Assembly (NCBI GenBank): GCA_024278775.1
Contig: JAJRSP010000190.1
Location: forward strand, 1 to 19,682
DNA from: Planctomycetota bacterium
GTDB taxonomy: Bacteria; Planctomycetota; Phycisphaerae; UBA1845
DNA length: 19,682 nucleotides
Direction of reading: 5' to 3'
Position numbers and translations under genes: made by a program. Every line of letters starts with the position of its first letter. Position 1 is the first letter of the stretch. The notes under the pieces are model-generated. The model searched no databases. It was not told the DNA's origin and worked only from the letters and a program-made list of their open reading frames with translations. Positions 191 through 14,205 of the stretch are shown here, piece after piece.

Positions 191-1249
191 ATGGCGAATT
201 ACAAAGTTCTCATCGGCGATGTAACCAATGGTCTGGCCACGCATAACCAGTCGGCCTGGCAAGCGGGCGATCGTGTGATCGACCCGGCCGGGAATCAACT
301 GGCCCGAACGAGCGAAGTCAGCGCCGCCGCCACGGGTATTCAGGGCGCGGTGGACACCTACGCCGAGTTGGCGGACCCCACCACGCTGGGCTTAGGCGTG
401 CTCTACATCGTCCGCCAGGATACCGGTGCGCCCAGCGGCGACGGTGTCTACCGCGTTGAGGATAATGCGGGTACGAACGTCTGGGCGTTCCTCGACAAGC
501 TCAATCTTCAGGACGCCTCGGAGGTGTCGTTCTCGAACGCGGCGTCCGGACTAACAGCTTCCGACGTGCAGGCTGCGCTCGATGAGATTGACGGCGCTGT
601 CGACGGCAAAGCCCAGGACGTTTACGTCGATAGCTCGTTCACCGGCCCGGTCGATACCGCTGCGGTCGATCCCAACGGCACCATTCCGAGCATGTGGTTC
701 CCGTCCGGCCCGGGCGACCCGCACGAGATGGTCGACGACGCGGTGCGCGATCCGAGCGTGCCCGACACCAGCGACTACGTCGAGTGGGACGCCACGATGC
801 AGAGCAACGACGATCCGGTCGAACTGGAACTGGCGACGATCGATCTCGCCGGCGGCCGCGTCAACGAAGTGACGGTGCGCGCCTACTGCGGCGGAACGGA
901 TGCCGACATGGACGTGGCGCTGAACATCGGTGGAACATACACGCAGCCGCAACCACTGCTCAGTAACGGCGGCGCAAACGGCTGGCGTACCGCGACGTTC
1001 AATGCGACGACCGACCCGACGCTGTTCCCGTTCGTGCAGGCCAATCTCGACGCGCTGCGTGCGCGTTTCCGCGGCACCACGCAGAACCCGCCGCCCGGCC
1101 CGCGCGTCACGCTCTACGCCGCCTACGCCGACGTGATCCACGACGGCGGCAGCGCATGGGCGACCGCATCGCCGTCAACCTTACAGGTTGCGCTCGACCG
1201 CCTGGCCACCCAGGTCGCCGCGCACTTCGGTTCGAAGATCCCCGCGTAG
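191..1249 (+). CDS. Phage structural protein, fibre/decoration-like
   Basis: A 352-residue protein with a strong ribosome site (AAGGAG at 178-183, 7 bases before the ATG). Two stretches are of the kind common in phage virion and fibre proteins: around residues 55-95 a YAELADPTTLGLGVLYIV...DGVYRVED segment, typical of short beta modules in tail proteins, and around residues 115-135 a SFSNAASGLTASDVQAALDEI segment, the trimer-like motif often seen before fibre repeats. The C-terminal half (about 145-352) is Asp/Gly/Pro-rich and looks like a beta-sandwich. There are no membrane segments. It sits just before the connector and tail tube genes. The exact role (decoration, neck fibre or tail fibre) is not determined; the virion assignment is inference from motifs and position. 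Confidence 0.6.
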   Translation: MANYKVLIGDVTNGLATHNQSAWQAGDRVIDPAGNQLARTSEVSAAATGIQGAVDTYAELADPTTLGLGVLYIVRQDTGAPSGDGVYRVEDNAGTNVWAFLDKLNLQDASEVSFSNAASGLTASDVQAALDEIDGAVDGKAQDVYVDSSFTGPVDTAAVDPNGTIPSMWFPSGPGDPHEMVDDAVRDPSVPDTSDYVEWDATMQSNDDPVELELATIDLAGGRVNEVTVRAYCGGTDADMDVALNIGGTYTQPQPLLSNGGANGWRTATFNATTDPTLFPFVQANLDALRARFRGTTQNPPPGPRVTLYAAYADVIHDGGSAWATASPSTLQVALDRLATQVAAHFGSKIPA

Positions 1250-1277
1250 CCCCCGGAATCAAAGGCGAGGCACTGCC

Positions 1278-1691
1278 ATGATCGGCATGAAGGTGAAGTT
1301 CAACCCCCGCAAACCGCGTGACGGCATCGACACCCACAAGGTCAAACGTGCCGTCGATCGCTCCACCTTCCGAAACCTCGGCCACGCTGGCGCAGCCGTT
1401 CGTATGACGGCCCGTTGGAGCATTCGCCGAAGCCAAAGGCCCGCTGCTCCCGGATCGCCGCCGCGCACGCGCCGAGGCCAACTCAAGAAAGCCATCGTTT
1501 ACGCGGTGGAGAAGACCAGGCAGCGCGTGGTGGTCGGACCCACGCACAACATCGTCGGCCCGTCCGCCATGGCCCACGAGTTCGGCGGGCGCTTCCGGGG
1601 TCAACGGTACCCCAAGCGCCCGCTGATGGGGCCGGCATTGATGAAGAATATCGACCGCCTGCCCAGGTTCTGGGCTGGATCGGTGAATTGA
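1278..1691 (+). CDS. HK97 gp10-like head-tail connector / minor tail protein
   Basis: 137 residues, small and strongly basic. I chose ATG 1278 because AGGCGAGG lies just upstream; the frame stays open further upstream, but that stretch overlaps the previous gene and reads as low-complexity Arg/Pro shadow. The C-terminal part carries the pattern of the HK97 gp10 family: a VVVGPTHNIVGPSAMAHEFG stretch (residues about 82-101), then basic residues and a P-x-R/K-P-x-M-x-P-A-L-like sequence (PKRPLMGPALMKNI). In that family the protein joins the head completion proteins to the tail tube, and its gene precedes the tail tube gene, as it does here. It ends 17 bases before the tail tube gene. Confidence 0.72.
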   Translation: MIGMKVKFNPRKPRDGIDTHKVKRAVDRSTFRNLGHAGAAVRMTARWSIRRSQRPAAPGSPPRTRRGQLKKAIVYAVEKTRQRVVVGPTHNIVGPSAMAHEFGGRFRGQRYPKRPLMGPALMKNIDRLPRFWAGSVN

Positions 1692-1708
1692 AAGGAGTGA
1701 AGTAAACC

Positions 1709-2131
1709 ATGAGCATCAGACTCGGCATGGAAGCCAAACTGTACTGGGGTGCGGCCGGGGCAACGGCGAGCACGGAACTGACCAACGTCAAGGACGTCAC
1801 GCTGAACCTCGAAACCGGCGAAGCCGACGTGACCACGCGCGGCAACCTCGGCTGGCGCGCCACGGTCGCCACGCTCAAGAACGGCAGCGTCGAATTCGAG
1901 ATGGTCTGGGATACCGCCGATCCCGGCTTCGTCGCGCTCAAGGACGCCTACTTCAACAACGCACCGATCGCTCTGGCCGTTCTCGACGGCGACATCGCTG
2001 CCGGCGGGTCCGGCCTCGACGCGGACTTTGCCGTGACCAACTTCTCGCGCAGTGAACCGCTCGAGGAAGCGATCACGGTAAGCGTGACCGTCAAGCCGAC
2101 GTATGCCACCCGCGCACCGGTCTGGATATAG
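1709..2131 (+). CDS. Major tail tube protein
   Basis: 140 residues, with a good ribosome site (AAGGAGTG at 1692-1699). The sequence is almost all alternating beta strands: an early LTNVKDVTLNLETGEADVTTR stretch, then a WRATVATLKNGSVEFEMVWD hairpin and a closing ITVSVTVKPTY strand. This is the layout of the siphovirus/TP901-type tail tube fold, in which a small beta-sandwich stacks as hexamers to build the tube. Its place between the gp10-like connector and the tail chaperone matches siphovirus gene order exactly. Length is at the lower end for such proteins. Confidence is high for the role and moderate for the precise family. Confidence 0.75.
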   Translation: MSIRLGMEAKLYWGAAGATASTELTNVKDVTLNLETGEADVTTRGNLGWRATVATLKNGSVEFEMVWDTADPGFVALKDAYFNNAPIALAVLDGDIAAGGSGLDADFAVTNFSRSEPLEEAITVSVTVKPTYATRAPVWI

Positions 2132-2144
2132 GAGACATCTCGTT

Positions 2145-2651
2145 ATGAAAACCTTCACCGATAACGCCGGCCGCACATGGACGGTCAACATCAACGTCGA
2201 CGCCATCAAGCGCGTCAAGGGTTTGGTCGACGTCAACCTGCTCGATGTCATCGCCCCCGGAACGGCAAAAGGCGACCGCGATCTGCTTGGGCGCTTGAGC
2301 AGCGACCCGATTCTGCTCTGCGATGTGCTGTACGCCCTGTGTAAACCCGAGGCGGACCCCCGGAAGGTGTCAGACGAGGACTTCGGACGCGCCATGGGCG
2401 GCGATGCGATCGATCACGCGACGACGGCGTGGCTGGAGGAGTTGGTGGATTTTTTCCCGAAGGACAAGCGTCGCGTGCTCGGCAAGGCGCTTGCGAAGCT
2501 GCGGACACTCGAAGCCCGCGTGCTGGACGTCGCCGAGCAGAAGATCGACAGCCCGCAGATCGACGCGCTGATGGAGAAGGCGATGGCGGAACTGTCGAAC
2601 GACTCATCAATGAACTCGCCGGAATCGCCGGTGTCCACGCCGGACCCCTGA
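2145..2651 (+). CDS. Tail assembly chaperone, short form (G-like)
   Basis: 168 residues from ATG 2145, preceded by AGGAGA at 2130-2135. The protein is mostly helical and acidic (LLDVIAPG..., EELVDFFPKDKRRVLGKALAKL) and ends in a Ser/Pro-rich tail (NSPESPVSTPDP). It lies between the tail tube and the tape measure gene, where tailed phages encode the chaperones that coat the tape measure protein during tail assembly. The last about 60 bases are also open and protein-like in the -1 frame, which continues well past this stop. That is the arrangement of the G/GT chaperone pairs of lambda-like phages. Role is inferred from position, size and the frame overlap. Confidence 0.65.
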   Translation: MKTFTDNAGRTWTVNINVDAIKRVKGLVDVNLLDVIAPGTAKGDRDLLGRLSSDPILLCDVLYALCKPEADPRKVSDEDFGRAMGGDAIDHATTAWLEELVDFFPKDKRRVLGKALAKLRTLEARVLDVAEQKIDSPQIDALMEKAMAELSNDSSMNSPESPVSTPDP

Positions 2652-2890
2652 CGCTGCGTGAACTGGTGTGGATGGCTGAGGCAAAGCAGCGCACAGCCTG
2701 GTCGCATACGTCGGCCCTGCTGGCAATGCTCGCCAACGTCAATCGTGCAACTTCCGGGGGCAAGAGGAGTCAGTCGTTCAAGCCAAGTGACTTCGATCCG
2801 TTTGAACACACTGACATAGATCGCAGCGACAAACTTCCGGGAAGCGTGCGCATGTTGAAGGACGTATTCGTCAAACACAAGGAGGTGTAA
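2588..2890 (+). CDS. -1 frame extension of the tail assembly chaperone (GT-like)
   Basis: The frame one base behind the short chaperone encodes a credible protein from about 2588 to a TAA at 2888-2890: an ELAGIAGVHAGPLTLREL start, then VWMAEAKQRTAWSHTSALL and a KPSDFDPF motif near the end. I recall the LTLREL-WMAE-...-ANV pattern as common in planctomycete prophage chaperone regions. No convincing ribosome site or start codon exists at the head of this segment, so a -1 ribosomal frameshift from the upstream gene is the likeliest route. I see no canonical X XXY YYZ slippery heptamer; the best local candidate is the C run next to the stop (CCC TGA at 2646-2651), where a -1 slip re-pairs perfectly. 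The left boundary is approximate. Its 3' end overlaps the ribosome site of the next gene. Confidence 0.55.
   Translation, partial: GTVERLINELAGIAGVHAGPLTLRELVWMAEAKQRTAWSHTSALLAMLANVNRATSGGKRSQSFKPSDFDPFEHTDIDRSDKLPGSVRMLKDVFVKHKEV
2749..2760 (-). repeat. CCCCCGGAAGTT-family copy, inverted, in the chaperone extension
   Basis: AACTTCCGGGGG is the exact complement of the unit. In the reading frame it encodes Thr-Ser-Gly-Gly, the same peptide the copy at 6434 encodes. Shorter matches (AACTTCCGGG) lie at 2832-2841 and 7631-7640. Confidence 0.65.
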
Positions 2891-2893
2891 ACC

Positions 2894-3445
2894 ATGAAGA
2901 CCAATCACATCGTAGCCGTCGTCATTTTCCTCATCGTTGTCTTGTGCCTGGTCGCGTGCGCGACAGCGGGACGCATCATCACCGAGGAGCGCTACGGCGA
3001 CCTGACGCGCCGCGTTACCGTACTGCAACCGGGCGGCGCGGTTGAAGCGGCTACACTCGATCAAACAGATCCGAATGACAAGGGCGTGACCCTGAGCGCA
3101 TCGACCGGCGCGCGGCAGCGCGTCGATCAGGTCGGCGTGCGACGTATCGGTATCGTTACCTGGTCGGGTGTGGCCCTGTGTGTTATCGGCGCGACGCTCA
3201 TCGTCGTTCGTGGTTGGTTCCCATTGATTCCCATGTCGGCCAGTATCGCCACGATCGGTGTGGGCGTAGCGCTACTGTGGCTGCCTGCCGTGCTGGATCA
3301 GTACACATGGCTGCTTCTGATCGTCGCGGGCTTTGTCGGCGTGTTGTATCTGACCGGCGGCATCGACAACTGGATCAAGCTTTACAGAAACAAGATGCCA
3401 ACCGCATCTACCTCGCCACCACCACCTTCTGTAACTGGAAGCTAA
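2894..3445 (+). CDS. Small membrane protein between chaperone and tape measure genes
   Basis: 183 residues with a near-perfect ribosome site (AAGGAGGTG, 8 bases before the ATG). The N-terminus is a hydrophobic segment (residues 5-21) ending in LVAC at residue 22, which fits a lipobox, so it could be a lipoprotein signal or simply a first membrane helix. A soluble acidic/basic loop follows (about 25-80), then three closely spaced hydrophobic stretches (about 84-104, 106-126, 128-150) and a Pro/Ser-rich tail. No family is recognised. A membrane protein is unexpected here in a tail operon; holin, superinfection exclusion or host-envelope factor are possible, none of them shown by the sequence. 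Confidence 0.6.
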   Translation: MKTNHIVAVVIFLIVVLCLVACATAGRIITEERYGDLTRRVTVLQPGGAVEAATLDQTDPNDKGVTLSASTGARQRVDQVGVRRIGIVTWSGVALCVIGATLIVVRGWFPLIPMSASIATIGVGVALLWLPAVLDQYTWLLLIVAGFVGVLYLTGGIDNWIKLYRNKMPTASTSPPPPSVTGS

Positions 3446-3448
3446 TCT

Positions 3449-5797
3449 ATGCCCTCCGCACGTGGCATCAAAGCCGGCGCGGCGTATGTTGAACTATACG
3501 CCACCGACAATCGCCTGGCACGCGGTCTTCGCGCGGCGCAGAAGCGCCTGCGCGGGTTCAGCGTGTCGGTAAGCGGCATTGGTAAGCGCCTCACCGCACT
3601 GGCCGCCGTCAGCGCAACGCCACTGCTCGTCGGCGTGAAGGTGTTCGCCGACTTCCAGCAGCAGATGGCCAACGTCGAGACCATGTTGGCCCCCGGAAAT
3701 GCCGAGAAATACATGGATCGCTTCCGACGCGGCATCCGCGAGATGTCCGTCGAGTTCGGCGAGTCCACCGAGGCGCTGGCTGGCGGGTTGTACGACATCC
3801 TCTCCGCGTCTGTCGCACCGGAGCGCGCACTCGACGTGTTGGCCACCTCGGCGCGCGCCGCTAAGGCAGGACTGACCGACACGCGCACTGCGGCGGATGC
3901 GATCACCACGGTGCTCAACGCTTACGGCCTGTCGGCCGAGCATGCCGGAGACGTCTCCGACTGGCTATTCAGCATCGTCCAGCGCGGCAAGACGACGTTT
4001 GCGGACCTCGCGCCCACCATCGGCAACGTCGCCACCATCGCCGCGACGGCGGGCATCGGCTTTGACGAACTGGGCGCTGCCGTCGCGACGCTAACGCGCA
4101 GCGGCATCAAGACCGAAGAATCAATGACGGCTGTCAACGCCATCCTCTCGGCCTTCCTCAAACCCAGCGCCGAAGGTGCCAAGCTCGCGCGCGAACTCGG
4201 ATTCGAGTTGAACACGGCAACGCTCAAGAGCGAGGGACTCGTCGGCGTGTTCCAGCGCATCGCCGATCTGCCGCCGGACGCGATCGCAAAGCTGTTCCCG
4301 AATATTCGTGCGCTCAAGGGCGTATTACCGGCGCTAAAGAACATGGCGAGTTTTGGCGACGACGTCGCCGCAATGGCAAACCGTGCCGGCGCAACAGAGA
4401 CAGCCTACGAGAAGATGACCAAGACGCTGACGCACGCGTTCAACCGCGTGAAGCAGGCGGGACTCGTGGCGCTGTCCGTGGTCGGCGAAGCCTTGAGCGA
4501 ACCGGTCGCCAGGGCGTCAGCCGCGATCACGCGTTACGCGCAGATGATCGCCGAGTTGGTGCAGAAGAACAAGGGACTGGTGCTCGTCGCGGCGAAGGTC
4601 ATCGCCATTGTCGGCCTGGTCGGCGGCACTCTCATGGCCGTGGGCATTGCCGGTCAGACGCTGGCGTTCATCTTCGGCGGCATCGCATCGATCATGTCCG
4701 GCGCTGGTGCTGCGATCGGCATTGTCGGCTCGGCGTTGGCGGCGATGCTTTCGCCGATCGGCCTGGTCATTGCCGGGGCGGTCGTTCTGGCTGGTGTCAT
4801 CCTGCACGCCACCGGCGCGGCGGGGAAAGCTCTCGATTGGCTTGGAGGCCAATTCCGGGGGCTGAAAGACAAAGCGCTGGTCGCCTGGCAGGGTATCGCC
4901 GACGCACTGGCTGCCGGCGACATCGCCTTGGCCGCCAAGGTCCTGTGGTTAGCCTTAAAGATCGAATGGCAGCGCGGGATCAACTACCTCGAAAGCCTGT
5001 GGTTAGGCTTCAAGGACTTTTTCCTCGGCATCGCCGTGGACGCCTTCTACGGTGCGGTGAAAGTCCTCGCCACTGCCTGGCACGGCCTACGGGCGGTATG
5101 GGCCCAAACGACGGCGTATCTATATAAGGTATGGGTCCAGTTCACATCGGGAATTCAGTCCGCCTTCCGAGGAGCCCAGTTGAAGGTCGAAGAGGGCCTG
5201 CATCACATCGCGGGTTTGCTCGACGAGAACTACGACGTCGAGGCTGCGATCAACATCGCCCGCACGAACGAGCAGGCCGACCAGCGAAACATCGAGCAGC
5301 AGAAACAGCAGTCGCTCCAACAGAGCGAACAACAACGCCGGCAGGATATGGCCCGCATCGGCCAGGACTTCGAGGCTGAGAAGCAGGCGATCGACCAGGC
5401 ATCGCAGAAGGCGCACAACGAGCGGCGGGGCCGCTACCAGCAGCAGATCGACGAATCGATGACGGCGCTCGAAGCGGCGCGCAGGGAATACCGCAGCGCC
5501 TTGGCCGAAGCCGCGCAGAAGCGCCGCGTCGCGGAATCGCAGCAACCATCCGAGGGTGACGGACAGTCTGGTCTATTGAACGAACTGAAGGATCGGCTGG
5601 CGAACCTCGGCGACACGCTGCAGCGCATCGGCGAGCGCACCGTTGAAGTCCGAGGCACGTTCAACGCCGCCGCGATCCAAAGCCTGATGACATCCGACGG
5701 CACGGCCGACCGCACCGCCAAGGCCACCGAAGCCACCGCCACCAACACCAAGCGACTACTGACCGAAGCCCGGCGCAGCACGCTGACGTTCGCTTGA
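3449..5797 (+). CDS. Tail tape measure protein
   Basis: 782 residues, the longest phage gene in the window. The N-terminus (about 1-60) has the AYVELYATDNRLARGLRAAQKRLRGF-type start of tape measure proteins. Residues about 65-330 match the TIGR01760-type core: a helical region with ADFQQQMANVETML, an ESTEALAGGLYDILSA stretch and a TAADAITTVLNAYGL stretch. Residues about 374-460 are strongly hydrophobic and Gly/Ala-rich, as expected for the part inserted into the host membrane at DNA ejection. A Gln/Glu/Arg-rich coiled coil occupies about 606-699. Tail length scales with this protein at roughly 0.15 nm per residue, suggesting a siphovirus tail near 115 nm (inference). The gene follows the small membrane protein by 3 bases with only a weak ribosome site. 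Confidence 0.88.
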   Translation: MPSARGIKAGAAYVELYATDNRLARGLRAAQKRLRGFSVSVSGIGKRLTALAAVSATPLLVGVKVFADFQQQMANVETMLAPGNAEKYMDRFRRGIREMSVEFGESTEALAGGLYDILSASVAPERALDVLATSARAAKAGLTDTRTAADAITTVLNAYGLSAEHAGDVSDWLFSIVQRGKTTFADLAPTIGNVATIAATAGIGFDELGAAVATLTRSGIKTEESMTAVNAILSAFLKPSAEGAKLARELGFELNTATLKSEGLVGVFQRIADLPPDAIAKLFPNIRALKGVLPALKNMASFGDDVAAMANRAGATETAYEKMTKTLTHAFNRVKQAGLVALSVVGEALSEPVARASAAITRYAQMIAELVQKNKGLVLVAAKVIAIVGLVGGTLMAVGIAGQTLAFIFGGIASIMSGAGAAIGIVGSALAAMLSPIGLVIAGAVVLAGVILHATGAAGKALDWLGGQFRGLKDKALVAWQGIADALAAGDIALAAKVLWLALKIEWQRGINYLESLWLGFKDFFLGIAVDAFYGAVKVLATAWHGLRAVWAQTTAYLYKVWVQFTSGIQSAFRGAQLKVEEGLHHIAGLLDENYDVEAAINIARTNEQADQRNIEQQKQQSLQQSEQQRRQDMARIGQDFEAEKQAIDQASQKAHNERRGRYQQQIDESMTALEAARREYRSALAEAAQKRRVAESQQPSEGDGQSGLLNELKDRLANLGDTLQRIGERTVEVRGTFNAAAIQSLMTSDGTADRTAKATEATATNTKRLLTEARRSTLTFA

Positions 5798-5809
5798 CCC
5801 TCTGGAAAC

Positions 5810-5821
5810 ACCCCGGAAGTT
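5810..5821 (+). repeat. CCCCCGGAAGTT-family copy before the 5825 start codon
   Basis: ACCCCGGAAGTT lies just before ATG 5825, with GGAAG about 8 bases from the start, so it probably doubles as the ribosome site. It is the same unit as at 2749, 6434-6463 and 6696-6732. Confidence 0.7.
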
Positions 5822-5824
5822 GCC

Positions 5825-6691
5825 ATGCCCATCACCGTCGAAGAAAAACTCGAAAGCCGCCAGTCCACGACAGGGCAGAACGCTTCGGTGGACCTGATAT
5901 ACATCGTGCGCGGCAGCGACGATGACATCCAGATCAAAAGCGCCGTTGATACCAACTCACCGTCTGACCACGATGGCCTTGAAAAGCAAAGCATCCACAT
6001 TGAACCGATTGGCCCGCAGCTTTGGGAAGCCACGGTGCGCTACGGTATTCCGGGTGGCACCAACGCACCGCCGCCGGAGACCGGTGAGTCCTCCTTCAGC
6101 TTCGACACCGGCGGCGGCAACCAGCACATCACCCAGTCGTTGCAGACCGTCGGGAGTTACGCCGCCACTGGAATGCCGGGGACTCCCGACTTCCAAGGTG
6201 CGATCGGCGTCGCAGACGCTTCCGGGGGCATTGACGGCGTGGACATCACCGTGCCCGTCTATCAATTCAGCGAAACGCACTACATCGACGACAGCGTCGT
6301 CACACTCGCCTATCGCGGCACGCTTTTCAACCTCACAGGCAAGACGAACGATGCGCCGTTCAAAGGCCTAAGTGCAGGCGAGGGTCTGTTCCTCGGCGCA
6401 TCGGGTACGAAACGCGGCTCTGCCTCCGGGGGAACTTCCGGGGGCGGGGGTGCCCCCGGAAGTATGGGCGATTGGGAGATCACGTTTCGCTTCGCCGCGT
6501 CGCCGAATCGAACCGGCATGACCATCGGCGGTATCACCGGCATTGACAAGAAAGGCTGGGAGTACATCTGGGTGCGCTATGCGGATGTTGAGGACACGAC
6601 CGCGCTGGTCATTGTGAAGAAACCTGTCGCCGTCTACGTCGAGAAGGTCTACGAGGAAGGCGACTTCGCGGCACTGGGAATCGGAACATAA
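5825..6691 (+). CDS. Distal tail-cluster protein of unknown function
   Basis: 288 residues, beta-rich and acidic, with no signal or membrane segment. Residues about 80-140 and 190-220 are Gly/Pro-rich. The second stretch (SGGTSGGGGAPGSMGD) is encoded by a perfect inverted repeat of the CCCCCGGAAGT element. The C-terminus (GWEYIWVRYADVEDTTALVI, then a KKPVAVYVEKVYEEGDF segment) resembles, from memory, a conserved protein found after tape measure genes in planctomycete prophages. By position it could be a distal tail or baseplate component. Its ribosome site appears to be the GGAAG of a repeat copy (5810-5821). No function can be named from sequence. Confidence 0.6.
   Translation: MPITVEEKLESRQSTTGQNASVDLIYIVRGSDDDIQIKSAVDTNSPSDHDGLEKQSIHIEPIGPQLWEATVRYGIPGGTNAPPPETGESSFSFDTGGGNQHITQSLQTVGSYAATGMPGTPDFQGAIGVADASGGIDGVDITVPVYQFSETHYIDDSVVTLAYRGTLFNLTGKTNDAPFKGLSAGEGLFLGASGTKRGSASGGTSGGGGAPGSMGDWEITFRFAASPNRTGMTIGGITGIDKKGWEYIWVRYADVEDTTALVIVKKPVAVYVEKVYEEGDFAALGIGT
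6434..6463. repeat. Perfect inverted repeat of the CCCCCGGAAGT element (hairpin)
   Basis: ACTTCCGGGGGC (6434-6445), a 6-base loop, and its exact complement GCCCCCGGAAGT (6452-6463). It lies inside a coding region, encodes a Gly/Ser linker, and would make a 12-bp GC-rich stem in DNA or mRNA. Confidence 0.85.
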
Positions 6692-6695
6692 CCCC

Positions 6696-6732
6696 CCCCC
6701 GGAAGTTCCCCCGAAAGTTTCCCCGGAAGTGA
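6696..6732 (+). repeat. Three tandem CCCCCGGAAGTT-like units between two tail genes
   Basis: The units are CCCCCGGAAGTT (6696-6707), CCCCCGAAAGTTT (6708-6720) and CCCCGGAAGTGA (6721-6732). They fill almost the whole gap between the stop at 6691 and the ATG at 6736. The GGAAG of the last unit is placed to act as a ribosome site. Confidence 0.8.
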
Positions 6733-6735
6733 AGA

Positions 6736-7596
6736 ATGAGCGACATCCTCAAGAAGGTGAACTCCGGCGATCCGCTGCGCATCCACGCACGGACGTACAA
6801 CGCCTTCATCGACGCAGCACTCGACCACCAGCATAGGCAACACTCCGGCCAGACTACGTCACCGGCGCGATTAGCATCCGCCAACACATCTGCGAGTGCG
6901 GGCAACGTCGTTCTGATCCGCAACGACAGCGGCCAGAACCGCCAGCGCTTTGAAATCCTCGGCATCAACGCGCCGGTGTTTTTGCCGACCGATCACCTCG
7001 AAGAGTTCCAGCGCCAGGTAGCGATTGCTTGCGTCGAGCCGGTAATTGATGAACACGCCGATCGCTTCGTGATCCTCAGCGAACCAGTGCGCGCCGGAGC
7101 GATCGGGCGTGCGTGGGTAAGCGGTGTCTGTCCGGTTCAGGTCGTTGTCGATGACGAAACCTTCATGTTCGCCGAGGTGCAGGACGGCGATGCCACCTCG
7201 CTCAAGGCCGTGCTGATCGGTCCCGTCACGATCGTGTGGAAGGAACCCGGCGTGGGTACTGACCTTCGCTGGGCCCTGGTGCGCTTCGGTTCCGCGCCCA
7301 TTCCGGGGGTGATCCCGGTGAAAGTCTGGCGCGACGGCGGCACCACCGACGGCAGCAAGACACTGCAGTGCAACCGCACCTACAAGGTTCGCGCACTGGA
7401 AGCCCAAGGGCCCAACGACAACACGGGCCAGTTGCTCGGTACGAACCTCGCGCCCCTGAAACGCCGCCCGGCACGCGGCAAGTTATCCGTCGCATCAAAC
7501 ACCGGCGCAGGTGAAATCGGCACCGGCTACTTCTATGGCAATGACTTCATCCTCTACGACGCGAACGAAACCCTCGACGTGGAGGCGTGTACCTGA
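6736..7596 (+). CDS. Distal tail-cluster protein of unknown function
   Basis: 286 residues beginning MSDILKKVNSGDPLRIHART, followed by a helical NAFIDAALDHQHRQ segment and a long beta-rich region: residues about 55-75 VVLIRNDSGQNRQRFEILGI, 95-150 with CVEPVIDEHADRFVILSEPV, then GAIGRAWVSGVCPVQVVVDD. I recall the SGDPLRI...YN-FIDAA opening as recurrent in planctomycete prophages downstream of the tape measure gene, but it has no characterised function that I know of. A virion or baseplate component is the likely role. The start codon lies just after a tandem array of three CCCCCGGAAGTT-like units whose last GGAAG may act as the ribosome site. The stop overlaps the next start (TGATG). Confidence 0.6.
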   Translation: MSDILKKVNSGDPLRIHARTYNAFIDAALDHQHRQHSGQTTSPARLASANTSASAGNVVLIRNDSGQNRQRFEILGINAPVFLPTDHLEEFQRQVAIACVEPVIDEHADRFVILSEPVRAGAIGRAWVSGVCPVQVVVDDETFMFAEVQDGDATSLKAVLIGPVTIVWKEPGVGTDLRWALVRFGSAPIPGVIPVKVWRDGGTTDGSKTLQCNRTYKVRALEAQGPNDNTGQLLGTNLAPLKRRPARGKLSVASNTGAGEIGTGYFYGNDFILYDANETLDVEACT

Positions 7597-8237
7597 TGGG
7601 AAGCAGTGGTCAATTCGACATCGACCCCCAAACTTCCGGGATTGGCGCGTTCGGTGTTGCCGATGATGGCCGCTTTATGATTTGCGGTGAGTGCTGTGGT
7701 GGGCCGCCGTGTCCACTTTGTCCGGACGGTGCGCTGTCGTCGACGATCCAAGTTGATGTCGCCGGTGTCACGCCGTGCCCGGCAATCTGCCGCGACGCAT
7801 CCGGCTGGAGTTTTCGCGCCACCATCCTTATCGATGTCAATGGTAATTATGCGCTGCCGCAGGACATCGGTTGGCCGTGCTACTACGACGCCTATCGTGT
7901 TATGCCTCAGTACTACAAGTACGAATTCTGGCGGAACCCTACTTGTAGCGATCCGCAGCATTGGCAAAGCCCGAGCCTGTGGGATCTGTCCGTCGTCGCC
8001 GAGTTCTTCATGGGCGAAGACTACGGCTTCACCCCCGGCCTGAAATTCGGCGTCGCCCTCGTCGGCGGCGACTGCCCCTTCGCCGGCATCATTGACATCA
8101 CGAACGCCTGTCACGGTACGCACGTCGTGCCCAATCAGAACCCATCGTGCTTCGAGCGCGCGACGAACATCTGGTTTGATCCATCGGGTTACAGAGCATC
8201 CGCCACTGGCGGCACCGCGACGGTCACGATTCCATGA
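7596..8237 (+). CDS. Cysteine-rich tail-cluster protein
   Basis: 213 residues from ATG 7596, which overlaps the previous stop and has GGAGG at 7581-7585. A GTG at 7587 is in frame but lies only 1 base after that ribosome site, so I prefer the ATG. The protein has 12 cysteines, including a tight cluster at about residues 30-43 (CGECCGGPPCPLC) and single cysteines spaced through an aromatic, beta-rich body. The cluster could bind zinc or form disulfides. No signal peptide is visible, which favours metal binding or folding within a virion particle. Function is unknown; by context it is part of the tail or host-contact apparatus. The stop overlaps the next ATG by 4 bases. Confidence 0.55.
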   Translation: MGSSGQFDIDPQTSGIGAFGVADDGRFMICGECCGGPPCPLCPDGALSSTIQVDVAGVTPCPAICRDASGWSFRATILIDVNGNYALPQDIGWPCYYDAYRVMPQYYKYEFWRNPTCSDPQHWQSPSLWDLSVVAEFFMGEDYGFTPGLKFGVALVGGDCPFAGIIDITNACHGTHVVPNQNPSCFERATNIWFDPSGYRASATGGTATVTIP

Positions 8238-8587
8238 AACCTCAGTATCGCAAGTTGCACGACCAGAGCGCCGCACGGCAGGGCGACTCGTCCGCAGGCG
8301 CATCGGTCACACATCGCATCCTGCCGCCCGGCGACTGGTTGGCGATGTTCATCCAAGTCGCCACTGTTGGCTTCGTCCGTCCCTGCACCGGGTGCAAATC
8401 CCGCATGACGGCAATGAACCGTGCGGGGTGGCGCGGGCTGCCTAGGCTCACGCTGCGTTGGATAGGTATCAAGACTGGCGCTCGTCTTAGCAACCGAAGC
8501 TGCAGCCCGGTACGCACACGCTGTTCATCGACGCCACGACCAACGATCCGCCCTACAACTTCGGCGCGTGGTATCGATTCGACCTGA
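8234..8587 (+). CDS. Small Cys-x2-Cys prophage protein, 3' part probably frameshifted
   Basis: The ATG overlaps the previous stop (ATGA), pointing to translational coupling. The first about 75 residues look real: a polar N-terminus, a short hydrophobic helix (WLAMFIQVATVGFV), then RPCTGCKSRMTAMNRAGWRG, a Cys-x2-Cys plus Arg/Trp motif that I recall in small proteins of this prophage type. After about residue 80 the sequence becomes Arg/Ser/Thr/Pro-rich shadow while the +2 frame becomes protein-like (see the fragment at 8491-8607). The 3' half is therefore probably a frameshift or fusion product. Function unknown. The reading frame as such is open to the TGA at 8585-8587. Confidence 0.45.
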   Translation: MKPQYRKLHDQSAARQGDSSAGASVTHRILPPGDWLAMFIQVATVGFVRPCTGCKSRMTAMNRAGWRGLPRLTLRWIGIKTGARLSNRSCSPVRTRCSSTPRPTIRPTTSARGIDST

Positions 8588-8607: not shown

Positions 8608-8857
8608 TGCCCGAGCAACCCGAATCGCTCCAGCCGACGCTGAAGAAGAAGTGTCCCGACTGCCCGCCGCTAGTCGCCCCCGGCGCGGCTACACGCCCAC
8701 GCGGCCAAGCTGCATCGAGTGCGTCGAGTAGCACCTCGGCGCGGCGTTGGTCCTGCTCACCGAAGCCCACGAGGGCTGCTCCTATCGGCTTCGCGCTATC
8801 GGCCACCTCTTCGAAGCCGAGGACGAGTCTCAGGAATGGCCGGCGCTGCACTTTTAG
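8607..8857 (+). pseudogene. Broken small Cys-motif prophage protein (frameshift, internal stop, truncated)
   Basis: The ATG at 8607 overlaps the previous stop and has GGAGG at 8594-8598. The first frame gives MPEQPESLQPTLKKKCPDCP. From about 8687 the protein-like sequence moves to another frame: GYTPTRPSCIECVE, an in-frame TAG at 8729-8731, then HLGAALVLLTEAHEGCSYRL, RAIGHLFEAEDESQEWPALH and a TAG at 8855-8857. Two CxxC motifs (CPDC, CIEC) suggest a zinc-ribbon-like protein. From memory, intact relatives have Lys in place of the first TAG and run about 20 residues further, so the gene carries three lesions. Known cause of the end: none; homology simply stops at about 8851. Confidence 0.6.
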
Positions 8858-9263
8858 ACCGACGTTTACAGTGTGCGAGTCTGCGAATTACGCTTCCGAG
8901 AACAACGCCACACAGGCTCAGATGGAAGTAGACCAGCTTCTTGGTCTGGTGCGAGATCGACCGTGAGCTCCTGGCTGACGCCGATTTGTAGCTGTCGCGG
9001 AAGATTTCCCCGGACGTAGCGTGAGGCCAACGACAAAGGCAAGCCGCCTGATCAGACCCCAATGTGCGGTCCAATCCGAACTGGAGCGATTGTCCCAGCG
9101 TCAGCAGCTCGCACATGGGATTGAACTCCGCTAAAATCTACCGCCATCAGTCTCTTCGACTCGTTGCGAAGACGACCGTTCTACGACTGTTGTTTTCTTA
9201 CCGCCGCGGCGTGAACAGCATGTGCAAGATCCGGGCACAATTAGGGGCTTCTAGGGGGTGAAC
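8858..9263 (+). other. 406-base stretch with no recognisable gene
   Basis: Between the broken prophage protein and the kinase start I see no protein that reads convincingly in any frame, no tRNA-like cloverleaf and no clear terminator. The open frames here are short and of mixed composition. The stretch begins exactly where the upstream pseudogene loses its expected sequence, so it may hold the scar of a deletion or insertion and the promoter of the downstream three-gene unit. No well-spaced -35/-10 pair is evident. Confidence 0.4.
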
Positions 9264-10583
9264 ATGGCCAGCGGCAAGCTGGATATCGTTGCCGAACGTT
9301 ACCTGATCCAAGAGACGATTCAGACCGGTGGGATGACAACGGTCTACCTCGCTCGTGATCTCGTAAGCGATGAACTGATTGCTCTCAAGCGATTCGACCG
9401 GGACAAGCATCTTCCGGAGATTGAGCGTGAGGCGTTTCTCCGTGAGGTTGACGCTCTCCAGAACCTCAAACATCCCAGCATCGTGCGGATGTTGGATTCC
9501 GGAGAGGATGCTCAGGGGCAATTCTACGTCGTGCTGGAACTCATGCGGCACGACCTTGTTCACGAGCGTCACGCGGGCGGAGCTCCATTCGCGGGCTGGG
9601 ACGATTTCGCCGACCTCGTGGTCTTGCCTCTTGTGGAAGCTCTCGCGTATGCCCACGAGATGGATATAGCCCATCGAGATGTCAAACCGGCAAACGTCCT
9701 GGTCGATGTCGATGGATCGGTGAAGCTGGCAGATTTCGGCATCTCAAAGCTCAAACGAACGCTCCAGCCACGCGTCACCCTCAACCAGTTTATGTCCCCT
9801 CCCTTCTCGCCACCCGAAGCTGACACGGGTGGCTACACCTATTGCCGTGATGTCTATTCGGTTGGGGTGCTTTGTATATGGGGCCTATGTGACATTCATG
9901 TACATGGCCACGCGAGCGTGCTCGAAGGGCTGAAGACGTTCGATGCACCACCAGAGGTCGTCGATGTCATCCAGCGAGCCGTCTCGACGGCACCGGAAGA
10001 CCGCCAGCAGTCTGCAGTCCTGCTGGAGGCAGAGCTCTCTCGCATACAACTCAAGAGACGACGGGACTGGCAGGCTCAGGACCGGCCGAGCTGTGCTGTC
10101 GGACTGACGAATCGGGCACGTGAGGCAATCGCAGAGGAGATTGCGACGGACGACGAGCACGCGATCCGCAAGTTCGTTGACGAGGACATGAATGCGGACG
10201 CCTGCATTCAGCGACTTATTGAGAAACCCGGGACCATGCAGGAACGCGTACGTTCTGGTCACTATTCTCTGCTGGGAAGCAGCCTTCGCTATCACTTGGC
10301 TGGTAGCAGAGGCGAGAGAAGATGGATCGAAGCCGAGGAAGTCTTCAAGCGATTGCATCGTGAGTTTCCTGACCTTATGACGTATCGTGACATCGGTCAC
10401 AGCCACGAGAAACGACTGATATGCGACGACCGATTCACATTCGGTGGAAGTTTTAACCTTTTGTCCTTCTCCGGCGAACGGCGCGGCCGAGGGAAGTTAC
10501 GTCACGAAGGTGCCGACCTGATCACGTCGTCTGAGTTCTGCGAAGAGCTTTATAGCCGATACCTCAAGGAGTTTTTTTCTTGA
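9264..10583 (+). CDS. Hanks-type Ser/Thr protein kinase with unknown C-terminal region
   Basis: 439 residues from ATG 9264 (AGGGGG just upstream; an in-frame GTG lies 6 bases earlier). Residues about 10-265 form a protein kinase domain: a loosened Gly loop (TGGMTTVY), the ATP-anchoring Lys42 (ALKRF), helix-C Glu61, the catalytic loop HRDVKPAN (His137-Asn144, catalytic Asp139), DFG at Asp157, a PPE-type P+1 motif and CRDVYSVGV (helix F Asp). It should therefore be an active kinase transferring phosphate to Ser/Thr. There is no transmembrane helix or PASTA repeat, so it is cytoplasmic. Residues about 275-439 are a separate helical, charged region I do not recognise. It is the first gene of a three-gene unit with a GTPase and a tail-anchored protein; GC content drops relative to the prophage. 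Confidence 0.88.
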   Translation: MASGKLDIVAERYLIQETIQTGGMTTVYLARDLVSDELIALKRFDRDKHLPEIEREAFLREVDALQNLKHPSIVRMLDSGEDAQGQFYVVLELMRHDLVHERHAGGAPFAGWDDFADLVVLPLVEALAYAHEMDIAHRDVKPANVLVDVDGSVKLADFGISKLKRTLQPRVTLNQFMSPPFSPPEADTGGYTYCRDVYSVGVLCIWGLCDIHVHGHASVLEGLKTFDAPPEVVDVIQRAVSTAPEDRQQSAVLLEAELSRIQLKRRRDWQAQDRPSCAVGLTNRAREAIAEEIATDDEHAIRKFVDEDMNADACIQRLIEKPGTMQERVRSGHYSLLGSSLRYHLAGSRGERRWIEAEEVFKRLHREFPDLMTYRDIGHSHEKRLICDDRFTFGGSFNLLSFSGERRGRGKLRHEGADLITSSEFCEELYSRYLKEFFS

Positions 10584-10665
10584 CGGACGGTTTGTCCTGT
10601 AGAATTCGGCCAATTCGCACCGCTATGCGCGGGCGACAGCGCCATTGCGGAAGGCGAATCACGAC

Positions 10666-10737
10666 ATGGGAAAGCCTGCTCATAAACTGAATCGGATGTT
10701 GGCAGGAGCGATATCAACGATTTTCCGTGGGAGGTAA
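10666..10737 (+). CDS. Possible 23-residue leader peptide before the GTPase gene
   Basis: In the 158-base gap between kinase and GTPase an ATG at 10666 opens a 23-codon frame ending in TAA at 10735-10737, inside the ribosome site of the GTPase. The peptide is basic and contains KPAHKLNRMLAGAIST, which loosely resembles the start of small KPxHKIR-type proteins found on mobile elements. No clear ribosome site precedes it. It may be a coupling leader, a remnant or chance. Confidence is low. Confidence 0.2.
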   Translation: MGKPAHKLNRMLAGAISTIFRGR

Positions 10738-10741
10738 CAGA

Positions 10742-11500
10742 ATGGCTTGGAGTGCGCTGTTCGCGAAGTCATGGAAGGTACTCAGTCAAGCGGTCAAGAA
10801 GCATGGCCCAAAGCTTGCCAAGAAGTATGGGCCATTACTCATTGATTGGGTGCGCAGGCTCGCACCGAAAGTTCTGGATTGGTGGAATGGCAAGAAGATT
10901 GCAGTGATCGGCCCCACTGCGGTCGGTAAGAATTGCCTTTACCACCGCCTTCGGGGTGAGGTCATTCCAGACGACCACCACCAAACCAAGAGCCCTGAGC
11001 GTATGCCCCGTTTTGCTTTCAAGCGATCGCTACCCAGCGGTAAGGAGTTCCAAGTCACCTTCAGCCGCTGCACCAATGTGGGAGGTGAACTCGAGCAAAG
11101 GACACGATATTGGCTCGACACATGCAGAGACGCCGACGTCATCTTCTACATGATGACGCTGGATGATCTGCGACACGGCAAGTTCCGACAGCGTTCCCGG
11201 ATTCATGGGGACCTGAAATGGTTGGCGTCTCATATGGGTCAATTATCGAACGGCGTTGTGGTTCATCTCTTGGTCAACAAGATTGACCTCGAACTCGAGG
11301 ATGGGGACGGCTACAAGGAGTTCGTCGCAGAATTGCAGGCGCACATCGATGAATTAGAGGCAACGGCTAAGGCGGTATTCGGGGACTATCATCACAGATT
11401 GACGGGAATCAGTCCGACGTCCATTAAGGACGACCATATATTCGCGTTATCGTTCCCTCGGGCGCTAGAGTCGGTGTATGAGGTACTACATCAGCGATGA
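10742..11500 (+). CDS. Ras-like P-loop GTPase with amphipathic N-terminus
   Basis: 252 residues from ATG 10742 (GGGAGGT at 10729-10735). Residues 1-50 form a basic, Trp/Leu-rich amphipathic helix (SWKVLSQAVKKHGPKLAKKY, then LLIDWVRRLAPKVLDWW), suited to lying on a membrane. The GTPase domain follows: G1 is GPTAVGKN at 57-64, with Asn where Ser or Thr normally binds magnesium; ADVIFYMM is the central strand; G4 is NKID at 179-182, giving guanine specificity. The G3 DxxG motif is not evident (TNVGGE instead). These departures suggest slow or absent hydrolysis, or a sensor-like GTP switch. It is sandwiched between a kinase gene and a tail-anchored protein gene whose start it overlaps. Family knowledge supports a small GTPase; its partner and signal are unknown. 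Confidence 0.75.
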   Translation: MAWSALFAKSWKVLSQAVKKHGPKLAKKYGPLLIDWVRRLAPKVLDWWNGKKIAVIGPTAVGKNCLYHRLRGEVIPDDHHQTKSPERMPRFAFKRSLPSGKEFQVTFSRCTNVGGELEQRTRYWLDTCRDADVIFYMMTLDDLRHGKFRQRSRIHGDLKWLASHMGQLSNGVVVHLLVNKIDLELEDGDGYKEFVAELQAHIDELEATAKAVFGDYHHRLTGISPTSIKDDHIFALSFPRALESVYEVLHQR

Positions 11501-12147
11501 ACATTATCTGGATACTTCCCCACCGCTCTCAGGACGATGACGAAGCTGTGATCGTCAACGGTGTCAGCTGCAGATTGAGCGACGCACTTGACGTCTCAAC
11601 TCTACCGCCGGCCGTCACACTGGGCATACCTGAGTCGGTCCTGCGGAAGCATGGCACCAATGATCTGATCTTCAGCCAATTCGTCCGCGACGCACCTTCG
11701 GTGCGCAGTTATTACATTCTTTCCGTTCCGGCAGGCAAAGATAAGGGGGGGCGAGCTGTCTATTTGACCGCATTGACGGTTTTGGAGGCCGGTGAACATA
11801 TTCCGAGCCTTCTGCCGACTGACGAACTGGACGGTCCGGAGCGAGACCTCGCGAAAACTCTCCAGCAGAGGCTTCAAGACGTGCAAGACCATTGGGCGGC
11901 GAGAGTGCAAGAGATGATCAAAGCCGTAAGACACAATCCCAATGTAGTCTCGTTCGCGAATGTCTTGATTCCGAGGTCACCTTACCCGTCACGATGGACG
12001 CCGGAAAAAAAAACGTTTGGCCGGATCGCGCTAGCGACTTTGTGCGCGGTGATTGGCGTGGCGACCATCATGGTCCTGCGTAATTGCTCCCAGAATGGGG
12101 ACGTCCGGCCAGCCGAAAGGAATGCAGTGACGCAACGCTCGAAGTGA
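11497..12147 (+). CDS. Tail-anchored protein of the kinase-GTPase unit
   Basis: 216 residues; the ATG overlaps the GTPase stop (ATGA), so the two are almost certainly translated together. Residues 1-135 form a compact soluble domain (MNIIWILPHRSQDDDEAVIV..., SYYILSVPAGKDKGGRAVYL). A helical stretch at about 108-150 (DLAKTLQQRLQDVQDHWAAR) is followed by one membrane helix at about 177-196 (IALATLCAVIGVATIMVL) and a short charged tail. Such C-terminal anchoring leaves the bulk of the protein in the cytoplasm. I recognise no family. The pairing with a membrane-leaning GTPase suggests it is the membrane docking partner or an effector. Its stop lies 11 bases before the left end of the insertion sequence. 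Confidence 0.7.
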   Translation: MNIIWILPHRSQDDDEAVIVNGVSCRLSDALDVSTLPPAVTLGIPESVLRKHGTNDLIFSQFVRDAPSVRSYYILSVPAGKDKGGRAVYLTALTVLEAGEHIPSLLPTDELDGPERDLAKTLQQRLQDVQDHWAARVQEMIKAVRHNPNVVSFANVLIPRSPYPSRWTPEKKTFGRIALATLCAVIGVATIMVLRNCSQNGDVRPAERNAVTQRSK

Positions 12148-12158
12148 ATCGACGCTAA

Positions 12159-12167
12159 AGTGGTCCA
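12159..12167 (+). repeat. Left terminal inverted repeat of the IS
   Basis: AGTGGTCCA, matched in inverted form at 13545-13553. Similarity falls off after the ninth base. Confidence 0.55.
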
Positions 12168-12229
12168 CAAGCGGGTGTGAAAAAAACTCAGCCACCCGCC
12201 GGAGGTGGTTCAAAATGTCGGGCACTGTG

Positions 12230-13318
12230 TCATGCAGCTTTTCGCTCGTAGTGGTTGAGCAATCCGCCGAGCAACTGCTGCCGACGGACAACCCCGATTT
12301 CACCCGCGACGGGAGGCGAGGGCGGCTGGCCGGCTTGGCCCAAGGGCACGTTGCCAAGCGGCTGATGGGGGCGACGGTGATTATAGAACATCGCGTAGGT
12401 CTGGACGATGTGGTCCATGTGACCGAGGCTGAAGCAATAGAAATGGTTCAGGCACTCCCGCTTCAGGCTGCCGATCCACGACTCGGCGAAAGCGTTGGCG
12501 ATCGGCGACTGGTACGGCGTCTTGACGATCTGGATGTCCGCTGCCTTGAAGACATGGTCGAAGGACTCGGTGAACTTGGTGTCGCGGTCGTGAACGATGA
12601 ACCGCATACCGAGCCCTTCCTCATCGAGCCACATGCCGACGTTTCGTGCCTGCTGCTTCACCCACTCTTCGGTCGGGTGGTAGGTGCTCGAGCTGACGAA
12701 GACCTTTCGGCTACCCAGATGAATGAACATCAACCCGTAAGCGAGCCGCTTGCCAAGCGGTGTCCAAACGTTCTTGCAAAAGAAGTCGCAGGCCACCATG
12801 GTGTTGACGTGCATATTGACAAAAGTGCGCCACGGGGTGGTCACACCCTTGGGCGCGCGCCGGTCGGGGTCAGGCAGCAGTCCTTCGTCAACCAGAACAC
12901 GCCGCACCGAGCTGCGGCTCGGGGTCAGCACCAGCTTGCGCAGCTCGCCCACGATCCGCCGCACGCCCCAGCCGACGTTTTCGCGGGCCAGACGCAGAAT
13001 CAACTCACGGAGCGACGCGGTCATCTGCCGGGGGCGGCCGACCCGTCCAGGCGCTTTGCCTTCCCGCTGTTCGCGGAGCCAACGCTTGTACGTCTTGACA
13101 CTGACGATGCCGATGAGATCATCAACCCGATGTTCCAACGACGCTCCCAGCTTGAGCAAGCGCGACCGCTCCTCCGGCGTGAGGATGACCCGGTTGCCAA
13201 GCACCCTCTGTCGCAGCAGCTCGACCTGGGCTTGCAGGAATCGAATCCGCGCGTCACGCCGGATCGACCAAGCCTCCGTCAGCATCCAGAACACCACCAT
13301 CATCCATCGTGGAAGCAC
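12230..13318 (-). CDS. DDE transposase, integrase-core (rve) type
   Basis: About 362 residues. A GGAGG lies 8 bases before GTG 13318, which I prefer; GTG 13324 and ATG 13306 are in frame. The N-terminal third is helical with helix-turn-helix character (SVKTYKRWLREQREGKAPGR, then RQMTASLRELILRLARENVG and WGVRRIVGEL). The integrase core follows, with the catalytic triad visible as VACDFF (Asp about 180), FIVHDRDTKF (Asp about 246) and NAFAESWIGSLKREC (Glu about 281; D-34-E spacing; numbering from 13324). It ends with YNHRRPHQPLGN. The triad is complete, so the enzyme may be active. Resemblance is to IS3/IS481-type transposases; the exact IS family is not settled. Confidence 0.85.
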   Translation of the reverse strand: MLPRWMMVVFWMLTEAWSIRRDARIRFLQAQVELLRQRVLGNRVILTPEERSRLLKLGASLEHRVDDLIGIVSVKTYKRWLREQREGKAPGRVGRPRQMTASLRELILRLARENVGWGVRRIVGELRKLVLTPSRSSVRRVLVDEGLLPDPDRRAPKGVTTPWRTFVNMHVNTMVACDFFCKNVWTPLGKRLAYGLMFIHLGSRKVFVSSSTYHPTEEWVKQQARNVGMWLDEEGLGMRFIVHDRDTKFTESFDHVFKAADIQIVKTPYQSPIANAFAESWIGSLKRECLNHFYCFSLGHMDHIVQTYAMFYNHRRPHQPLGNVPLGQAGQPPSPPVAGEIGVVRRQQLLGGLLNHYERKAA

Positions 13319-13544
13319 CGGCACGTCCTCCGATCCAAATGTCGTAAGTTCAGTAATGGCAACTGCCCAACATTATGGACCACCCCCGTGGGACCGCCAA
13401 GCATGGCAACGTCGCCACAACGCCACGCCCTCTCCTGGCGACCCGCCCGATTCGCGTGAACTCGGCTCCAAGAGCCGTCACAAAAACTTCAACTGACCGG
13501 GCCAGCACCACAAAAAAAGCATACCCGACTTACCGAAGAGGGTT

Positions 13545-13553
13545 TGGACCACT
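13545..13553 (-). repeat. Right terminal inverted repeat of the IS
   Basis: TGGACCACT, the complement of the left end. The TAG stop of the adjoining PHP gene starts at the next base, which supports this as the true boundary. Confidence 0.55.
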
Positions 13554-14105: not shown

Positions 14106-14205
14106 GGCGTGTTCTCAGCCGGACCGGATGTGACGAACCTGTAGCCGTCCAGCCTTGGCGTCGCAGCCAGTAGTCCCAGACATAGCGATCATCAGGTGCG
14201 TACAT
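14098..14205 (-). pseudogene. N-terminal remnant of a glycosidase-like gene
   Basis: A 35-codon frame with a usable ribosome site (GGAG, about 8 bases before the ATG) begins MYAPDDRYVWDYWLRRQGW. This opening resembles the N-terminus of five-bladed propeller glycosidases (GH32/43/68-like), which often start with a YAP-D-x-x-VWDFW segment. After about 20 residues the likeness ends, and the frame stops just inside the PHP start. It looks like the stub of a deleted gene that once lay between the fucosidase and the PHP gene. The evidence is short. Confidence 0.3.

What the first reader, a model, noticed from the sequence alone, without database searches (positions are those of the whole stretch)
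9264..12147. Three-gene kinase / GTPase / tail-anchored protein unit that matches no system I know
Seen: a complete Hanks-type kinase with an unknown C-terminal region, a P-loop GTPase with an amphipathic N-terminus, and a single-pass tail-anchored protein, co-oriented, the last two overlapping by 4 bases. The unit sits between a decayed prophage end and an insertion sequence. GC is lower than in the prophage: hand counts of single 60-base lines give 31/60 (10741) and 34/60 (11521) against 38/60 (4261) and 43/60 (841). Known: kinases such as Stk2 act in anti-phage defence, and small GTPases with partner genes recur in bacterial conflict systems. Inference: a membrane-associated GTP switch controlled by phosphorylation, acting as an accessory defence or signalling module.
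Basis: partly seen in the sequence, partly recalled or inferred. Interest (0 to 1): 0.75.

Follow-up and report, generated by a model that had tools for sequence, protein, structure and literature searches.

The report
Collapsed Mokosh beside a GTPase pair
What looked like a new three-gene system is the fused wreck of a known anti-phage system (Mokosh) lying next to a separate, unstudied gene pair, a membrane-linked GTPase and a partner with a membrane tail, that recurs together in distant bacteria, twice close to known phage-defence genes.

Summary
The three ORFs are real and correctly placed, but they are not one system. ORF 9264-10583 is not a kinase with an unknown tail. Residues up to about 348 match the kinase end of MkoA of Mokosh type I (41-43% identical). 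Residues 349-439 match the last 91 residues of its partner nuclease MkoB (75% identical to P0081). The MkoA helicase and most of MkoB have no significant match in the window. About 3.6 kb seems to have been lost, fusing two genes in frame.

The GTPase and the tail-anchored protein are a conserved pair, adjacent and co-oriented in 6 of 7 related loci from three phyla. In Pseudomonas and Pectobacterium the pair lies within 3 kb of the DRT1 defence reverse transcriptase. In the other five loci the GTPase sits in an HMA_2/P-type ATPase/CHAD cluster. No kinase or PLD match lies in the stored flanks of the seven.

The GTPase is predicted Arf-like, with Asn/Asp in the P-loop and Asn for the G3 Asp. 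The partner may be longin-like (weak). The triplet is rejected. The pair remains an uncharacterised membrane GTPase module.

The parts
9264..10310 (+). MkoA-derived part of the fused ORF: N-terminus, kinase domain and the stretch before the helicase (ORF residues 1 to about 348)
   Evidence: tblastn of MkoA from L015 and L016 matches 9285-10310 and 9300-10298, 43% and 41% identity, E 9e-74 and 1e-78; PADLOC MkoA 1.1e-60; residues 245-348 alone hit 2 of 2 MkoA and 0 of 35 PLD proteins
10308..10583 (+). MkoB-derived part of the fused ORF: last 91 residues of the PLD nuclease, second half of PLDc_2
   Evidence: tblastn of P0081 residues 418-508 matches 10308-10580 at 75%, E 3e-44; residues 349-439 alone hit 35 of 35 PLD proteins and 0 of 2 MkoA; P0081 is MkoB by PADLOC (1.5e-49); PLDc_2 spans 362-468 of P0081
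10404..10427 (+). HKD motif HEKRLICD (ORF residues 381-388), followed by GGSFN
10742..11500 (+). Arf-like GTPase of an uncharacterised family (252 aa) with a long N-terminal helix
10910..10933 (+). P-loop GPTAVGKN: Asn where S/T is canonical (residues 57-64)
   Evidence: column 64 is N 22, D 10, S 1 in 33 sequences
11497..12147 (+). Tail-anchored partner protein (216 aa): alpha/beta domain plus C-terminal TM
   Evidence: homologues directly downstream of the GTPase in 6 of 7 loci, 18 invariant columns in A2
12022..12078 (+). predicted C-terminal membrane anchor (residues 176-194)
   Evidence: mean Kyte-Doolittle hydropathy 2.25 over 19 residues
12230..13324 (-). IS transposase (IS481/IS3-like DDE), right boundary of the cargo
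   Evidence: Pfam rve_3 and HTH_32 over cut-off; NCBIfam IS481 5e-27 and IS3 1.5e-23, both below their curated cut-offs
191..8442 (+). phage tail module (tail tube 1709-2131, tape measure 3449-5797 and others), left boundary
   Evidence: relatives in 9 viral contigs, DNA match to L037 ends at 8442

Best explanation
The region is a patch of acquired defence-type cargo between a phage tail module and an IS. Its first gene is a collapsed Mokosh type I locus: an internal loss of about 3.6 kb fused the start of mkoA (kinase) to the end of mkoB (PLD), removing the helicase and the first half of the PLD domain. The product is probably no longer a working defence system. The next two genes are an independent two-gene module. 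In it a membrane-associated Arf-like GTPase, with an amphipathic N-terminal helix and an unusual P-loop and switch II, acts as a nucleotide-dependent switch, and a tail-anchored protein translated from the overlapping gene acts as its membrane receptor or regulator. Shown here: the two-gene origin of the fused ORF, the conserved pair, the odd motifs and the contexts. Inferred: the size of the loss (from the lengths of relatives), loss of function, GTP binding, membrane recruitment, the partner's role, and a role in defence.
For: MkoA homology ends (10310) where MkoB homology begins (10308 with P0081). Searched apart, residues 245-348 hit 2 of 2 MkoA and 0 of 35 PLD proteins, and residues 349-439 hit 35 of 35 PLD proteins and 0 of 2 MkoA. 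MkoA and MkoB are separate adjacent genes with a 4-bp overlap in both intact loci inspected, the plasmid loci L015 and L016. The helicase AAA_11/AAA_12 domains lie at about MkoA residues 564-1125 and have no window match below E 0.9. Of the 35 other hits of the C-terminus-directed search, 0 has a kinase signature. The GTPase is followed by the partner gene in 6 of 7 loci from three phyla, with a 4-bp overlap in the window, L006 and L007. drt1a lies 2.8 kb downstream in L006, with one ATPase gene between; drt1b and drt1a follow the pair in L007; AbiTii is near in L007 and PDC-S11 in L006. The GTPase fold matches Arl1/Arf. All four cargo segments share low GC3.
Against: Only one copy of the fusion is known and no reads were available, so an assembly error or a retained function cannot be excluded. 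With P0082 and P0103 the gapped MkoB alignment runs further left (to 9996 and 10131), over a stretch that also matches MkoA; searched alone that stretch hits no PLD protein. The nearest subfamily of the GTPase (P0002-P0006) has no readable context, so the window lineage itself has a context of one. Five of the seven loci show a metal-transport/CHAD context, not defence. The partner's fold is a weak guess. No anti-phage activity has been shown for the pair in anything I read.
Confidence: 0.75

Rival explanations
1. The GTPase pair is not a defence module but part of a membrane metal-storage or metal-transport platform (HMA_2, P-type ATPase, CHAD). The defence-side copies are mobile derivatives or hitch-hikers.
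For: All five loci L001-L005 have DUF1490-like and HMA_2 matches and a P-type ATPase ORF upstream of the GTPase (read; Pfam on L002 and L003); CHAD is shown by Pfam in L003, with similar ORFs by eye in the other four. A tree puts the five within one 100/100 side of 51 rows.
Against: The window and DRT1-side copies lie outside that side (31-row side, 100/100). The HMA_2 and DUF1490-like queries hit neither L006 nor L007. No experiment links the GTPase to metal.
Confidence: 0.3
2. The fused kinase-PLD ORF is a working minimal effector, with the kinase and HKD end under control of the GTPase pair.
For: The frame is open across the junction, HRD, DFG and HKD motifs are intact, and the genes are co-oriented with shared low GC3.
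Against: The first half of the PLD domain and the whole helicase are missing. The fusion is single among the proteins found. No kinase lies beside the pair in 7 other loci.
Confidence: 0.07
3. The fusion is a metagenome assembly error joining the start of mkoA to the end of mkoB.
For: The protein is known from one contig, the window itself, and no whole genome is held for the window.
Against: The join falls in frame without a stop. The repeat search of 8700-13700 shows no long exact repeat at the join, only short imperfect matches (the nearest 10345-10363, 79% to 9385-9403).
Confidence: 0.08
4. One reading: a dedicated three-gene kinase-GTPase-tail-anchor defence or signalling system.
For: Gene order, co-orientation, overlap and composition in this one contig.
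Against: The kinase gene is a Mokosh remnant. The triplet is absent from 7 of 7 other GTPase loci in the flanks held. MkoB is absent from 6 of 6 GTPase genomes at E 1e-6. The GTPase is absent from the plasmid collection, where 23 records carry an MkoB-like match.
Confidence: 0.04

Closest known systems
Mokosh type I (MkoA kinase-helicase, MkoB PLD)
   Same: Both halves of ORF 9264-10583 are MkoA and MkoB by profile and alignment.
   Different: Helicase and most of MkoB are missing; two genes are fused into one; not a complete system.
DRT1 (UG1 reverse transcriptase-nitrilase) neighbourhoods
   Same: The GTPase pair lies within 3 kb of drt1a in Pseudomonas composti and next to drt1b and drt1a in Pectobacterium.
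   Different: No reverse transcriptase was seen among the window ORFs examined. The GTPase and partner of the window match no PADLOC model.
DO-GTPase/GAP1 conflict systems (PMC7159879, passages read)
   Same: Two-gene logic of a TRAFAC GTPase plus an associated downstream protein. A conserved Glu follows the G3 region (E116, 30 of 33). Weak DO-GTPase2 profile hits in 9 of 33 members.
   Different: The Roc profile hits more members (28 of 33). The window protein has no DO-GTPase hit. The partner is 216 aa with no GAP1 domain hit.
MglA-MglB and other small GTPase plus roadblock/longin partner pairs (starts of abstracts in a listing)
   Same: Ras/Arf-like GTPase encoded with a small alpha/beta partner.
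   Different: The partner carries a C-terminal membrane anchor and the GTPase has N/D in the P-loop. Sequence similarity to these was not tested.
TagF / Sec22b longin domain
   Same: TagF is the top Foldseek match of the partner model (E 0.031). PMC3325213 (passage) says TagF resembles the Sec22b longin domain. Both families have a D-x-x-G-R motif.
   Different: Foldseek E is not significant, VIA Z for TagF entries is only 3.3-3.8, and the profile comparisons are negative.

Membership tests
Mokosh type I | MkoA: N-terminal Ser/Thr kinase | tested here: met
   MkoA profile 1.1e-60; 41-43% identity to two MkoA over residues 13-345 and 9-349
Mokosh type I | MkoA: C-terminal superfamily 1 helicase (AAA_11/AAA_12) | tested here: not met
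   present at about residues 564-1125 of L015/L016 MkoA, no match below E 0.9 in the window
Mokosh type I | MkoB: separate full-length PLD protein of about 510 aa | tested here: not met
   only its last 91 residues are present, fused to MkoA
DO-GTPase/GAP1 | GTPase matches DO-GTPase profile | tested here: not met
   no hit for the window protein; 9 of 33 members weakly, best 2.3e-5
DO-GTPase/GAP1 | GAP1 three-domain partner downstream | tested here: not met
   none of the 7 members of A2 has a GAP1 Pfam hit at E up to 1, though HMMER's filters drop most weak hits
Arf/Ras-like TRAFAC GTPase | G-domain fold | tested here: met
Arf/Ras-like TRAFAC GTPase | P-loop GxxxxGK[S/T] and G3 DxxG | tested here: not met
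   N/D replaces S/T in 32 of 33; N (32) or S (1) replaces the G3 Asp in 33 of 33
Arf/Ras-like TRAFAC GTPase | NKxD guanine-specificity motif | tested here: met
   N 32, K 33, D 33 of 33
Longin/TagF-like domain (partner protein) | longin-type fold | tested here: inconclusive
DRT1 component | constant neighbour of drt1a | tested here: inconclusive
   2 of 7 GTPase loci have it; the converse (how many drt1a loci have the pair) was not tested

The most novel reading that the evidence does not exclude
The pair is a bacterial membrane-switch module in which an Arf-like GTPase with a re-wired Mg-binding site works with a tail-anchored longin-like partner, a bacterial parallel of Arf/Rab GTPases and longin SNARE-type anchors. 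It is used both at metal/granule membranes and, in mobile islands, next to DRT1 and Mokosh as an infection-sensing or membrane-directed defence component.
Probability: 0.15. Interest if true: 0.85.

Novelty: new variant of a known kind. Interest (0 to 1): 0.5.

Why it matters
It removes a false three-gene system from the list and shows how a decayed defence locus can mimic a new one: two known genes fused in frame look like one kinase with an unknown tail. It also brings out a conserved, unnamed GTPase and tail-anchored pair, seen in three phyla, with an unusual nucleotide site and two sharply different contexts. The pair is small enough to test directly.

Tried and rejected
A conserved kinase-GTPase-tail-anchor triplet: no kinase or PLD hit in L001-L007 (tblastn E up to 1, flanks of at most 10 kb and shorter at contig ends). 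GTPase as a phage or plasmid gene: no relative in viral contigs, phages or plasmids at the limits of those searches. Pair as a constant part of Mokosh: MkoB (query P0081) found in 0 of 6 GTPase genomes (no positive control); in 5 of 282 genomes of the phylum of G004, all partial, best 3.6e-7; in 1 of 297 of the phylum of G002 (29% identity), a genome that was not the one GTPase match, which apparently drew the same 297. By eye, no longest-contig length is shared between the GTPase hit list and the MkoB hit list, a weak test because most contigs are short. GTPase frequency by the genome search: 1 strong match of 247 (order of G006; five further matches at E 2.9e-4 to 1e-3 covered 29 to 64 positions and were set aside), 1 of 321 (class of G006), 1 of 297 (phylum of G002), 1 of 264 (phylum of G004, two copies), 1 of 150 (family of G002); each time the match was the centre genome itself. 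TagF membership of the partner: hhalign probability 0.1 and 0.17, hmmsearch E 0.14 or worse against five sequences; kept only as a fold hint. GAP1 membership: no Pfam hit. PDB sequence search with A2: nothing better than E 0.13. Ferrosome membership of the P-ATPase loci: the DUF1490-like hit is below its cut-off (E 0.013) and the ferrosome primary paper is not held; left open. tRNA search: none in the window. Promoter and terminator scans: about as many sites as in shuffles. Paper searches for Mokosh with GTPase and defense system, and for DRT1 with nitrilase and GTPase, gave 0 papers; this covers only the open-licence library.
Full report
Observation. They differ in composition from both sides: GC3 0.58-0.63 against 0.73-0.81 in the four phage, IS and downstream genes tested, so the block looks acquired. 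To the left is a phage tail module; DNA similarity to viral contig L037 (75%) runs from 3535 to 8442 and that contig ends 79 bases further. To the right is an IS transposase at 12230-13324 on the minus strand.

The kinase ORF is a fusion. The MkoA model of PADLOC gave the best hit (1.1e-60, residues 8-365), ahead of other defence kinases such as mad6 at 2.2e-43 and PD-T4-6 at 2.3e-41. A search with residues 266-439 found 35 other proteins between 284 and 518 aa; the best, P0081, is 75% identical over the last 91 residues. P0081 and the three others scanned are MkoB by PADLOC (4 of 4; the MkoB model covers residues 25-419 of P0081, and the C-terminal part matches MkoC). Two intact Mokosh loci were read from cyanobacterial plasmids: a 1147 or 1157 aa kinase-helicase gene overlapping a 511 or 530 aa PLD gene by 4 bp. 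Against these the window ORF matches MkoA residues 5-345 and 10-340 and then stops; MkoB residues 418-508 of P0081 start at the same place, 10308. With P0082 and P0103 the gapped alignment runs further left, to 9996 and 10131, so I searched the two sides apart: residues 245-348 hit 2 of 2 MkoA (E 2e-11 and 9e-11) and 0 of 35 PLD proteins, and residues 349-439 hit 35 of 35 PLD proteins and 0 of 2 MkoA. MkoA's helicase domains (about 564-1125) have no window match below E 0.9, and no other part of P0081 matches below E 0.6. Judged by the relatives' lengths the missing part amounts to about 1,200 codons. HRD, DFG and HKD motifs remain, but the PLD domain has lost its first half. None of the 35 other hits has a kinase signature, so among proteins of 0.55 to 1.75 times the length the fusion was found only here. 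The simplest reading is an internal deletion in a Mokosh type I locus, recent enough that the frame is still open. That Mokosh acts against phage is established elsewhere (Millman et al. 2022, recalled; PMC10952713 and PMC11291487, passages seen).

The partner. The protein search found no relative of the tail-anchored protein, but reading the DNA after the GTPase in related loci showed one. Seven loci in six genomes were found among the genome contigs. In six the next gene encodes a relative of 176-234 aa; with the window protein they share 18 invariant positions, among them W5, L7-P8, Q12 and the motif G-x-D-x-x-G-R. Five of these keep the C-terminal membrane stretch; in L006 a membrane-like stretch lies in another frame downstream, and no such gene was seen in L002. 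The pair is therefore real and widespread, and occurs without the kinase.

Contexts. In Pectobacterium aroidearum (L007) the pair is followed by drt1b and drt1a (DRT1), with AbiTii upstream; in Pseudomonas composti (L006) drt1a lies 2.8 kb downstream past a GHKL-type ATPase gene, with a PDC-S11 candidate and an MBL protein upstream. The other five loci (a gammaproteobacterial MAG, two Bryobacteraceae MAGs, two from one Myxococcales MAG) have DUF1490-like and HMA_2 matches in all five and a P-type ATPase ORF before the GTPase (Pfam on L002 and L003); CHAD is shown by Pfam in L003 with similar ORFs by eye in the other four. A tree of 82 GTPases places the five on one well supported side of 51 rows, and the window with the two DRT1-side copies on a 31-row side; the window's nearest kin are P0002-P0005, whose surroundings I could not read. 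The family is rare: in samples of 247, 321, 297, 264 and 150 genomes the only strong match was the centre genome itself each time.

Mechanism. Most likely the GTPase binds the membrane in its GTP state through its N-terminal helix and is recruited or regulated by the tail-anchored partner, giving a membrane-localised switch. In mobile islands this may serve defence alongside DRT1 or Mokosh; in the P-ATPase loci it may organise a metal-transport or storage membrane, for which DUF1490 proteins as P-ATPase scaffolds are a precedent (PMC9374683, passages). The conserved pair is shown; the rest is inference.

Verdict. The triplet is not a system. It is a collapsed Mokosh type I locus plus a separate conserved GTPase pair. 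The pair deserves follow-up; the kinase does not.

Noticed in passing
L001-L005 (for example L003:3156-10445): Cluster of DUF1490-like, HMA_2 and P-type ATPase genes with the GTPase, usually the tail-anchored partner, and CHAD-like genes, in MAGs of three phyla; looks like a metal platform or granule locus.
   Followed up: partly
L006:10627-11157 and L002 after 10672: The partner gene lacks its membrane stretch in frame in L006 and was not seen in L002, although the GTPase frame is open in both.
   Followed up: partly
window 3535-8442: Phage tail module with a relative of 75% DNA identity in viral contig IMGVR_UViG_3300030119_000996, which ends 79 bases past the homology.
   Followed up: partly
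L007:7214-8188: AbiTii-like gene (PADLOC 5e-37) about 1.8 kb upstream of the GTPase.
   Followed up: no
window 13554-19496: Minus-strand genes beyond the IS: an alpha-L-fucosidase (14230-15480) and a long protein with NosD/beta-helix matches (15490-18825).
   Followed up: no
P0103 residues 272-318: An MkoB relative carries a weak effector-associated domain EAD9 match (E 0.0011, below cut-off).
   Followed up: no
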